Origin: Heliorestis convoluta
Lineage (GTDB): Bacteria > Bacillota > Desulfitobacteriia > Heliobacteriales > Heliobacteriaceae
DNA length: 64,000 nt
Direction of reading: 5' to 3'
Assembly: GCF_009649955.1 (NCBI RefSeq)
Contig: NZ_CP045875.1
Span: 2,089,501-2,153,500, forward strand
A model generated the notes under the pieces. That model saw only the letters and a list, made by a program, of their open reading frames with translations. It did no database searches and was not told where the DNA came from. A program made the translations under genes and the position numbers. Shown here piece by piece: positions 10,735 through 61,212 of the stretch. The stretch's first letter is position 1; each line of letters opens with the position of its first letter.

Positions 10735-11265
10735 TAATTATACGAACCTCCCATGCCCGGTTGGGCACAACCATTTGATGAAAATCAACTTTTTCCTGAT
10801 TACGTTGGGGTTACTACATAGAGGGGACTGGTCATCACGTTTTCCTCCGCTCTGGACTGGTCCCACGCTGTTACCGCCAGCAAGCTGGCGACAGCTGAGG
10901 TCCCAAGTCCCGCTACGGAAAGCGTGATGACCAGTCCCAGAAGATTTTTGCTGATTGCAACTCCCGTTGGAATAGCTTGGAATAACTTCCTTCTATAGGC
11001 AACTACCTATTGTATTTGCATTTGCAATAGGCCCAAACGCAGTCACAACCAGTAAAATGTATCTGGGTCAGGCGTTATGACTTCCTGGAGAGAGGACTTC
11101 AGACCTCAGCCATCGGCAGCTTGCTGCCGCTCATGGCGTGGGATGAGTCCGTTCGGAAGGAATTCATAACGCCTGACCCCACCACAGGGTAGCTATTTTT
11201 GTACGAACCCCCCATGCCCGTCCAGGTACAACCAAAGATAAAAATTGCGTGCCAAACGAAACGTC
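10735..11265. repeat. Structured non-coding repeat element, copy 1
   Basis: A block of about 530 bp without a convincing gene that recurs at 60690-61212. In order: a border with a TGCCC...GGGCA hairpin (10754-10767); TTGGGGTTACT with CATAGAGG; hairpin unit A (10824-10938, 115 nt) whose ends GGGACTGGTCATCACG and CGTGATGACCAGTCCC pair; a 126-nt spacer containing CTATTG...CAATAG; unit B (11065-11179, 115 nt) with ends GGGTCAGGCGTTATGA and TCATAACGCCTGACCC; and a second border with CATGCCCG again. Unit B read on the other strand matches unit A's inner layout: TTCC, GGACT, CCCAC, a CAAG-capped GC stem, TGAGGTC, AGTCC, GGAA. It may be a non-coding RNA, a MITE-like element with hairpin ends, or a REP-type doublet. 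Confidence 0.8.
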
Positions 11266-11298
11266 CCCGTGACACATACAGAAAAAGGAGCTGCTACA

Positions 11299-12198
11299 AT
11301 GGCTGATACCACCTTTTCCGTTCGCATGGAACAAGAAAAGCGAGAAAAACTGCAAGAAATGGTTGATAAAAGCGGTCTTACCACGAAAGAATTTATGGAT
11401 CGGCTTCTTCGGGCCTATGAACAACAAGAGCTACGGCAGACTCTTACAGACCTGCGAGAGCTAGAACAACTGCAATATCATATTGCTAGAATCGAAGAAA
11501 TCTATATCTCTGTCGTCAAGACAGCACAAGATCAAGTGGAACAGGAACATAGAAGAGGTAAAAAGGCAGAGCAGACGGCAGAAGAAGCGCAAAAAGAGCT
11601 AGAAAAAGTTCGCAGTGCCTGTGATAAAGCGGTGCAAGAAGCGCTGAAAGAGGTAGAAAAAGTAAAATCAGAAGCAATCGAAAGGGAAAAAGAAGTAACA
11701 GAAAAAACTGCAAAGCTAGAAGAGGATTTAAAGCGAGCCCTACAAGGGCAAGAACAAGCCAGCCGTTTGGCCACTCTGGCAGAAGAAGCAGCTAGAACAT
11801 CAAAAAAGAAGATAGAAGAACTAAAAGAAAAAGTAAAAATGACAGAAATCTATCAGAACAGAGTGGCAGAACTAGAAAAAACAATAGGGGAGCTGGAAAG
11901 AACCATCCAAGAAGGTGAGGAGGAGAGAGGGAAGCTACAAGAAGCGGTCTTTGCAAAAGAAAAAGCTTTACAAAAAGAGCAACAGGATAGAGAAAAGGAG
12001 ACAAAGGCTCGGGAGCAACAGCTCCTAGATAGACTAGAAAAAAGCCAAGAAAAATCAGACATAGAAAAAGAAAAAGCACTGCTAGAAATGCGCAGAGCTT
12101 TTATAGATGAACTTGAAGTTGTAAGAAAAGAACTTGCCGAAGAGCGCTATCGTGTAGCGCGTCTTCAAGAAGAAAAAGCGCAAATGAAGACTATGTAA
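11299..12198 (+). CDS. Ribbon-helix-helix N-terminus with long coiled coil
   Basis: A 299-residue protein. The first about 45 residues (TTFSVRMEQEKREKLQEMV...TTKEFMDRLLRAYE) look like a CopG/Arc-type ribbon-helix-helix. The rest is almost uninterrupted heptad-rich, Glu/Lys/Gln-rich coiled coil. The architecture recalls KfrA-like or mobilisation accessory proteins, but no clear family is recognised. ATG 11299 follows AAAGGAG by 8 nt, and the leader begins right at the end of the structured repeat. A possible role is a DNA-binding, bundling protein; this is inference. Confidence 0.75.
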   Translation: MADTTFSVRMEQEKREKLQEMVDKSGLTTKEFMDRLLRAYEQQELRQTLTDLRELEQLQYHIARIEEIYISVVKTAQDQVEQEHRRGKKAEQTAEEAQKELEKVRSACDKAVQEALKEVEKVKSEAIEREKEVTEKTAKLEEDLKRALQGQEQASRLATLAEEAARTSKKKIEELKEKVKMTEIYQNRVAELEKTIGELERTIQEGEEERGKLQEAVFAKEKALQKEQQDREKETKAREQQLLDRLEKSQEKSDIEKEKALLEMRRAFIDELEVVRKELAEERYRVARLQEEKAQMKTM

Positions 12199-45749: not shown

Positions 45750-45893
45750 AAAAGAACTGAAGCAAAAAACTTTTGGCAGCAGAAGCCTTCTTTTACAGAA
45801 ACGTAGCCGAAAGCCCACGGTTTCAATCGTGGGATGAAGGCGGCACCCGTTTCTGATATTGCAGTACAACATACAAACTGATGCAATATTGAT

Positions 45894-46292
45894 ATGGGAC
45901 AAGAATATAGACGCACACAGACAACAGTATCTTTAATCAACTATCATTTCGTGTTCTGCCCTAGATACAGGCGAAAAGTTTTGGTAAAAGACGTAGATAG
46001 AAGGTTTCGGGAAATCTTACAAGAAGTATGCGACGAAAATGAAGTAAACATTGTTGAGTTAGAAGTAATGCCTGATCATGTCCATCTCTTTGCCAATGCC
46101 CTCCCTTCTATAAGTCCATCGGATATTATGGCAAAAGTAAAAGGAGTGACTTCAAGGAAGCTGCGGCAGGAATTTAAGCACCTGCACCATTTGCCTAGTC
46201 TTTGGACACGTTCTTTTTTCTGTTCCACGGCAGGAAACGTATCCAGTGAAACAATTCAACGGTACATCAAAGAACAAAAAACAAGGGGGTGA
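45894..46292 (+). CDS. tnpA: IS200-type Y1 HUH transposase TnpA
   Basis: 132 residues. It has NYHFVFCPRYRRKVL, the HUH motif MPDHVHLFA and the catalytic Tyr in ETIQRYIKEQK. It is full length and its stop overlaps the tnpB start. Confidence 0.95.
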   Translation: MGQEYRRTQTTVSLINYHFVFCPRYRRKVLVKDVDRRFREILQEVCDENEVNIVELEVMPDHVHLFANALPSISPSDIMAKVKGVTSRKLRQEFKHLHHLPSLWTRSFFCSTAGNVSSETIQRYIKEQKTRG

Positions 46293-47395
46293 TGAAAATT
46301 CAAATCACCGTAAAGGTTAAGTTGGAACCTACAAAAGAACAGTCGGTACAGCTTTTAACGACAACAAGAGAGTACATTCGCCTTGTAAACCAGATTGTAT
46401 CAGACTATGTTTTTGTAGACTCATACTTGAAGTACACCAGCAAAGATGTTGTGGCAGACCTTCCTAGTGCAGTTAAGAATCAAGCCATCAGAGATGCAAA
46501 AAGTGTATTCTCGAAGTACAAAAAGAATGTATTTGATAATTCAAAGCTTGCCCCTGAAAAGCAGAAAGAAGTTAAAGTGCCTGTTCTAAAAAAGCCTGTT
46601 GCTATCTGGAACAATCAAAACTACTCGCTGAAAGGCAACATACTATCTTTTCCGGTATGGATTGATGGCAAATCAAAGCGAATTAGTGTTAAGGTCATTT
46701 TGACTGACTACCAACAAAACCGATTAACGGGTAAGCGAGGTAGTCTTCGCATAACTCAAAAGGCAGGTAAGTACATAGCACAAATAGCCGTAGACCTATC
46801 CATGGAACACCAGCAAACTGGTGCTGTCATGGGTGTGGATTTGGGTTTGAAAATTCCTGCTGTGGCTGTTATAGAAGGCGGTAAAACCAAGTTTTTGGGC
46901 AATGGCAGACAGAACAAATTTGTAAAGCGCAAACATCGGTCTATCCGGCGCAAACTTGGCAAGCTGAAGAAGTTGTCAGCAATCCGTAAACGTCACGATA
47001 AGGAACAGCGCTGGATGAAAGATCAGGATCACAAGATGAGTCGGCAGTTAGTTAATTTTGCAAAAGAAAATGGCGTTGCTACAATTCGCCTAGAAAAGCT
47101 CTCAGGCATTCGCCAAACGGCAAGAACAAGCCGTAAAAACGAAAAAAACCTGCATTCTTGGAGCTTTTATCGGTTAGCATCATTTATTGAGTATAAGGCC
47201 CGTCTTGAAGGAATCAAAATAGAGTTCGTTGATCCTAAACATACAAGCCAGAAGTGTCCGATTTGCGGCCAACTCAATAAAGCAAAGGACAGAAAATACA
47301 AGTGTAAATGTGGGTTCCAAACACATCGAGATCGATTGGGCGCAAGCAACATCATCACTGCGCCTGTGGCCGATGGTAACAGTCGGTCAGCCTAG
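46289..47395 (+). CDS. tnpB: TnpB RNA-guided nuclease
   Basis: 368 residues. RuvC motifs are intact: Asp in MGVDLGLKIPAV, Glu in IRLEKLSGI, Asp in HRDRLGASN. The zinc ribbon is CPICG...CKCG. TnpB proteins are omega-RNA-guided endonucleases and ancestors of Cas12. Start GTG 46289 or ATG 46292. Confidence 0.95.
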   Translation: MMKIQITVKVKLEPTKEQSVQLLTTTREYIRLVNQIVSDYVFVDSYLKYTSKDVVADLPSAVKNQAIRDAKSVFSKYKKNVFDNSKLAPEKQKEVKVPVLKKPVAIWNNQNYSLKGNILSFPVWIDGKSKRISVKVILTDYQQNRLTGKRGSLRITQKAGKYIAQIAVDLSMEHQQTGAVMGVDLGLKIPAVAVIEGGKTKFLGNGRQNKFVKRKHRSIRRKLGKLKKLSAIRKRHDKEQRWMKDQDHKMSRQLVNFAKENGVATIRLEKLSGIRQTARTSRKNEKNLHSWSFYRLASFIEYKARLEGIKIEFVDPKHTSQKCPICGQLNKAKDRKYKCKCGFQTHRDRLGASNIITAPVADGNSRSA

Positions 47396-47520
47396 ACAGC
47401 TTATAGCTCTGGTCTAGGACGGGCTGCTGGCACAGCCCTGAACTTGGGGTCATACTCCGATAGCAGAAAGGCACTTCGGTTTAATCACCCAAGAATCCCA
47501 GCGGCTTTAGCCGTGGGAGT
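47330..47520 (+). ncRNA. Probable omega RNA (reRNA) overlapping the tnpB 3' end and right end
   Basis: TnpB guide RNAs come from the tnpB 3' end through the right-end hairpin. Here GGACGGGCTGCTGGCACAGC and the terminal CCGCTGGG/CCGTGGG-type hairpin could provide the scaffold. The guide would be read from DNA just past 47525. Boundaries are inferred. Confidence 0.5.
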
Positions 47521-47544
47521 GTCAATTAAACTCACTTCACTCAC

Positions 47545-60689: not shown

Positions 60690-61212
60690 AACCAATCATG
60701 CCCGGTTGGCAAAGCAGAAGATGCAAATCACTTTTTCTGATTACGTTGGGGTAACTGCTTGCAGGGGCCAGGGCATCACGCTTTCCTCCGCTCTGGACTG
60801 GTCCCACGCTGTTACCGCCAGCAAGCTGGCGACAGCTGAGGTCCCAAGTCCCGCTGCGGAAAGCGTGATGCCCAGGCCCAGAAAGCTTCTACTGATTGTT
60901 ACTCCCATTGGCATTGCTTTGCGTAACTTTTTGCTATGTATACGCAACTGGCTATTGTATTTGCAATAGGATAGGCTCAAACCCAGTCACAACCAGCAAG
61001 ATGTACCTGGGTCAGGCGTTATGACTTCCTGGAGAGAGGACTTCAGACCTCAGCCATCGGCAGCTTGCTGCCGCTCATGGCGTGGGATGAGTCCGTTCGG
61101 AAGGAAATCATAACGCCTGACCCCACCACAAATTATCTATTATCGTACTAACCAATCATGCCCGAGGTTAGGCATAACCAAAGATAATAACTGCCAAACA
61201 AAACGTTCTCGT
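60690..61212. repeat. Structured non-coding repeat element, copy 2
   Basis: Same layout as copy 1: left border CTAACCAATCATGCCCGG, TTGGGGTAACT, unit A (60765-60879, 115 nt), a 129-nt spacer with CTATTG...CAATAG, unit B (61009-61123, 115 nt), right border CTAACCAATCATGCCCG and a conserved tail to about 61212. In unit A the arms are GGGCCAGGGCATCACG and CGTGATGCCCAGGCCC, differing from copy 1 on both sides of the stem. Unit B is nearly identical to copy 1. Confidence 0.8.

What the first reader, a model, noticed from the sequence alone, without database searches (positions are those of the whole stretch)
10735..11265. A ~530-bp non-coding repeat present twice, 50 kb apart, with conserved layout
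10735-11265 and 60690-61212 match over nearly their whole length without a shared protein frame. Borders (CATGCCCG twice per copy), spacer and tail are all retained. It sits beside a tyrosine recombinase in one case and between a nitroreductase and an alcohol dehydrogenase in the other, so the flanks are unrelated. I do not recognise it as a known RNA family or insertion sequence.
Basis: seen in the sequence. Interest (0 to 1): 0.78.

Follow-up and report, generated by a model that had tools for sequence, protein, structure and literature searches.

The report
Terminator-seeking palindromic repeat, doubled in Heliorestis
The repeat is one of roughly 55 near-complete copies of a non-coding mobile element built from two inverted copies of a conserved hairpin, and the same hairpin in other Bacillota families lands in transcription-terminator hairpins and duplicates them, so it appears to be an undescribed family of hairpin-targeting miniature mobile DNA.

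Summary
The element is 461 bp (10746-11206) and 460 bp (60691-61150). The genome has ~55 near-full copies plus fragments, all intergenic and without a frame. Size and GC fit Heliorestis convoluta HH-T.

Each copy is a left module, hairpin H1, a spacer, hairpin H2 (an inverted relative of H1) and a right module.

The ~82-nt hairpin core is a real structured family: 27 aligned hairpins give 94.6% of cells paired and 14 pairs changed on both sides, against at most 53% paired in slid controls. There is no Rfam hit. It occurs singly in H. acidaminivorans (13), just after 23S rRNA in a sister genus, and in many copies in several other Bacillota families.

In those families the ~140-bp unit has imperfect terminal inverted repeats. 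Fifteen of 34 copies tested are flanked by 16-26 bp direct repeats, mostly whole terminator hairpins (null maximum not reached). This is the main evidence of mobility.

Best reading: a non-autonomous palindromic mobile element that integrates at terminator hairpins, dimerised and amplified in H. convoluta. The enzyme is unknown; an IS200/RAYT link was tested and not supported. Identical cores in H. convoluta may partly reflect a short-read assembly.

The parts
10746..11206 (+). Copy 1 of the composite element, left end ACCTCC to right end TACGA
   Evidence: Ends set by comparison of many copies; TACGA stands on both sides (10741-10745 and 11202-11206)
10746..10790 (+). Left module with CATGCCCGGTTGGGCA small hairpin
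   Evidence: Recurs alone and in tandem 54-bp mini-elements; absent from nine relatives
10824..10938 (+). Hairpin H1 (core 10841-10921)
   Evidence: Fold z -9.2; model match 85.2 bits; 43-nt core without mismatch at 56 places
11065..11179 (-). Hairpin H2, inverted relative of H1 (core 11082-11162)
   Evidence: Fold z -8.6; model match 95.3 bits on the minus strand
11180..11206 (+). Right module CACCACAGGGTAGCTATTTTTGTACGA
   Evidence: Conserved right end in the other copies
11207..11240 (+). Partial second left module abutting copy 1, with the second CATGCCCG (11213-11220)
   Evidence: Same arrangement after many other copies
60691..61150 (+). Copy 2 of the composite element
   Evidence: about 85% identical to copy 1
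60691..60735 (+). Left module of copy 2
60765..60879 (+). Hairpin H1 of copy 2 (core 60782-60862)
   Evidence: Fold z -8.5; 84.4 bits
61009..61123 (-). Hairpin H2 of copy 2 (core 61026-61106)
   Evidence: Fold z -8.9; 95.3 bits
61124..61150 (+). Right module of copy 2, ending TACTA
61151..61190 (+). Partial second left module after copy 2, with the second CATGCCCG (61157-61164)

Best explanation
It is a copy of a non-autonomous, non-coding palindromic mobile element. SHOWN: a unit with a covarying hairpin core occurs in many intergenic copies in several Bacillota families. Outside Heliobacteriaceae the ~140-bp unit has imperfect terminal inverted repeats and is often flanked by a direct duplication of a terminator hairpin. 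In H. convoluta two such units stand inverted between a species-specific left and right module, in about 55 near-full copies. INFERRED: a trans-acting enzyme recognises the folded core (as single-stranded DNA or cruciform) and integrates the element at hairpin-forming DNA, cutting the strands at the two feet of the target hairpin so that the hairpin is duplicated. The composite form arose in the Heliorestis line by dimerisation and by capture of the left and right modules, and then amplified.
For: Copy number, shared ends and intergenic sites. Covariation: 94.6% of cells paired, 14 pairs changed on both sides, slid controls at most 53%. Outer arms in H. acidaminivorans differ between copies but pair best with their own partner in 9 of 10. 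Direct repeats of 16-26 bp flank 15 of 34 outside copies, above the maximum of 272 cross-paired controls, and 11 of 14 fold better than shuffles at p<=0.02. Insertion in both orientations (L242, L264). Gaps without the hairpin in H. acidaminivorans. Many copies in six genomes of other families.
Against: No enzyme identified. No terminator duplication in H. convoluta or H. acidaminivorans. At least four hairpin sites look inherited from their common ancestor, which could also mean a host function. The identical H1 cores, mosaic spacers and hybrids in H. convoluta may be assembly products. No empty site from a second strain was available, so the duplications are inferred from flanks.
Confidence: 0.65

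Rival explanations
1. A host-useful structured RNA or DNA hairpin kept at each site (for example an RNase III or protein-binding site in transcripts, as in rRNA operons), with mobility long past.
For: Covariation; few singletons in hairpins against spacer and left module; four positions shared with H. acidaminivorans in the same orientation; nine of ten sister-genus hairpins lie beside a 23S 3' end, and the rRNA-sense strand folds better in 9 of 10.
Against: Singletons in H. convoluta are confounded by assembly. Orientation to genes is mixed in H. acidaminivorans. Several sites are empty there. Terminator duplications in other families need insertion.
Confidence: 0.2
2. A REPIN/BIME-type element moved by an IS200-like Y1 (RAYT) transposase.
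For: Inverted pair of palindromes, many intergenic copies, as in REPINs (PMC3116915); RAYT-sized Y1 genes exist in several hosts.
Against: The only Y1 gene of H. convoluta is an IS605-type gene; none in hosts G002, G006, G163; no hairpin within the 17 Y1 loci; terminator-long duplications are not expected from single-strand peel-and-paste.
Confidence: 0.06
3. A retro-mobile structured RNA (group II intron-like or SINE-like) copied into terminators by target-primed reverse transcription.
For: Conserved structured core, preference for terminators, and variable-length target duplications.
Against: No Rfam group II intron match; insertion in both orientations; no tail or 5' truncation pattern. The 5'-truncated 23S pieces that suggested retroposition look like assembly collapse.
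Confidence: 0.06

Closest known systems
MITEs and ERIC-type intergenic repeats (review PMC10969869)
   Same: Small, non-coding, many intergenic copies, palindromic, no transposase of their own
   Different: Much longer conserved core with covariation; target duplication is a whole terminator hairpin of variable length; no partner transposon found; doubled into a composite in H. convoluta
REPIN/BIME with RAYT (PMC3116915, PMC2817692, PMC3733652)
   Same: Palindromes in inverted pairs, intergenic, many copies
   Different: Unit of about 115-140 nt instead of 20-40; no link to a Y1/RAYT gene; terminator-hairpin duplications
Group IIC introns and Tn7 (attTn7)
   Same: Insert at or next to intrinsic terminators (general knowledge)
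   Different: No intron core, no genes, and no intron or Tn7 ends; duplication as long as the target hairpin
BOX/RUP/SPRITE repeats of pneumococcus (PMC3049150)
   Same: Modular small interspersed repeats of a Gram-positive genome
   Different: Sequence and modules were not compared here; listed as a lead only

Membership tests
MITE (wide sense) | Short, non-coding, many copies, intergenic | tested here: met
   About 55 near-full copies, all intergenic
MITE (wide sense) | Terminal inverted repeats | tested here: inconclusive
   Imperfect 15-bp repeats (11/15) in outside copies; not evident in the H. convoluta composite
MITE (wide sense) | Target site duplication | tested here: inconclusive
   Met outside: 15 of 34; not found in H. 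acidaminivorans or H. convoluta; 5-mer identity 5 of 29, p 0.01, but overall matches p 0.31
MITE (wide sense) | A full transposon with the same ends supplies the transposase | tested here: not met
   None seen in the loci read; whole genomes were not searched for it
REPIN/RAYT | Y1/RAYT gene in the genome, flanked by its repeats | tested here: not met
Known Rfam RNA | Match at gathering score | tested here: not met
   Window; other loci gave only rRNA and tRNA
Structured RNA or ssDNA motif (new family) | Base-pair covariation beyond chance | tested here: met
   Covariation score 0.410 against 0.160 shuffled and at most 0.093 slid. Quasi-palindrome repair by template switching could also create paired changes.
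Group II intron | Intron ribozyme core and intron-encoded protein | tested here: not met
   No Rfam match; no long frame in the element

The most novel reading that the evidence does not exclude
A widespread, undescribed class of mobile DNA whose unknown integrase recognises hairpins on both sides, the element's own folded core and an intrinsic terminator extruded in the target, and whose target duplication is therefore as long as the target hairpin.
Probability: 0.4. Interest if true: 0.78.

Novelty: new variant of a known kind. Interest (0 to 1): 0.62.

Why it matters
It names a repeat family present in many copies in several Bacillota families and without a match in Rfam for the window copies; the paper searches made here found no description of it. 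It gives a target rule (terminator hairpin, duplicated on insertion) that can be tested directly, and points to an unknown hairpin-specific integrase. In heliobacteria it also sits in rRNA operons and at likely rearrangement or misassembly points, so it matters for genome assembly and annotation.

Tried and rejected
Retroposition: 5'-truncated 23S pieces with one common 3' end looked like retrocopies, but 16S starts fused to 23S ends, and the short-read Velvet assembly, point to collapsed rRNA operons. REPIN/RAYT and IS605 mobilisation: not supported. Phage or plasmid origin: no match. A 5-bp TRYTA duplication in H. convoluta: weak. Terminator targeting in H. convoluta alone: 16 of 48 left flanks against 5 of 36 right flanks, weak by itself. 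Selection on every H1 copy: kept as possible, but confounded by assembly. The single match in G014 was treated as chance. First impression that the family is confined to Heliobacteriaceae: corrected by the better model.

Full report
1. Observation. Both copies are in the sequence as described. Each consists of two long hairpins, H1 (10824-10938; 60765-60879) and H2 (11065-11179; 61009-61123), joined by a variable spacer. Each hairpin folds far better than shuffles (z -8.5 to -9.2). H2 is an inverted relative of H1 (79% complementary over 57 nt). There is no conserved frame and no Rfam match. The genome is one contig of 3,218,981 bases, the published size of Heliorestis convoluta HH-T (PMC7143216).

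2. Copies and ends. The own genome holds about 55 near-full copies, many fragments, 64 pattern hits of the left-end motif, and 54-bp mini-elements made of left plus right module, some in tandem. The element proper runs from ACCnnnCATGCCCGG to CTATTTTCGTRYTA. In the window copies the second CATGCCCG belongs to a further partial left module. All 55 copies are intergenic (12 overlap only short ORFs), and 21 of 52 lie between convergent genes. The left module is absent from nine related genomes.

3. The hairpin family. A model of the core finds single hairpins in H. acidaminivorans (13) and five each in two species of a sister genus. In that genus eight of the ten lie about 30 nt after a 23S 3' end, and a ninth sits beside a truncated 23S end. 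The corresponding spacer lacks the hairpin in H. convoluta and in a second genus. Over 27 aligned hairpins, 94.6% of cells pair, 14 pairs change on both sides, and slid controls reach at most 53%. The outer arms in H. acidaminivorans differ between copies (0.44 identity) but pair best with their own partner in 9 of 10. The improved model then found the hairpin in many copies in G156, G163, G191, G197, G224 and G449, from several other families of the phylum: 10 of 398 genomes with a match in all, including G000.

4. Insertion signature. Outside Heliobacteriaceae the unit is about 140 bp, with imperfect terminal repeats CAGCTTGTAGACAAA / TTTGTCGACGGTCTG. In 15 of 34 copies, direct repeats of 16-26 bp flank it; the best of 272 mismatched left/right pairs scores lower. 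The repeats lie mostly at fixed distances (-26 and +34 from the core). Most are terminator stem-loops: 11 of 14 fold better than shuffles at p<=0.02, and in many the right copy is followed by the T-run. Two copies sit in the reverse orientation (L264, L242). I read this as insertion at intrinsic terminators with duplication of the hairpin.

5. Within Heliorestis. Several H. convoluta copies face gaps of about 60-150 bp without hairpin in H. acidaminivorans, so they were gained in one line or lost in the other. Four H. acidaminivorans hairpins lie in gaps that also hold a hairpin in H. convoluta, with H1 in the same orientation (fsa/glpX, ispA, galU/flg, and one gap whose two sides lie apart in H. 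convoluta, each beside a copy). So the family is old and partly inherited vertically. No terminator duplication remains in either species.

6. Caution on H. convoluta. The genome was assembled with Velvet from 454 GS20 and Illumina GAIIx reads. rRNA operons look collapsed, and some copies share 185-330 bp of identical flank that ends abruptly. The perfect identity of H1 cores (56 places), the mosaic spacers and the hybrid copies may partly be assembly products. The other genomes give independent evidence for the core and its pairing.

7. Mechanism. Shown: structure, copy number, and insertion with duplicated terminator in relatives. Inferred: a trans-acting enzyme that recognises the folded element and a hairpin in the target. 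Not shown: the enzyme, and whether RNA or DNA is recognised. A Y1/RAYT mover was tested and not supported. Template switching at quasi-palindromes could also keep arms paired without selection.

8. Novelty. The family resembles MITE/ERIC and REPIN elements in kind.

Noticed in passing
window 11245-12198: Long coiled-coil-like protein without Pfam match, starting right after copy 1; its likely start is ATG 11300 with a ribosome site, not the TTG at 11245.
   Followed up: no
window 45800-47530: A complete-looking IS605-type element (Y1 transposase 45894-46292 plus TnpB 46289-47395), the only Y1 gene of the genome; its visible end hairpins do not resemble this repeat.
   Followed up: partly
L132, L134, L136, L138, L146 (G000): 23S rRNA 3' pieces of 191-1112 nt, some fused directly to a 16S start: likely rRNA operons collapsed in the published assembly.
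   Followed up: partly
G000 433362/1244979, 883064/2727775, 3122839/3135099/3135868: Copies that share 185-330 bp of identical flank on one side only, ending abruptly: probable misjoins at repeats.
   Followed up: partly
window 11248-11275 and many other sites: Another dispersed short repeat, TGCCAAACGAAACGTCCCCGTGACAC, often next to the left module.
   Followed up: no
G000 2749821-2749907, 472487-472583, 809463-809559: 54-bp mini-elements (left plus right module without the hairpins), some in tandem.
   Followed up: partly
L232 (G446): Five weak hairpin-model matches, four of them spaced by about 113-124 nt, resembling a tandem array.
   Followed up: no
G002 and G006, 23S rRNA downstream spacers: The hairpin sits about 30 nt after the 23S 3' end in eight loci; a role in rRNA processing is open.
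   Followed up: partly
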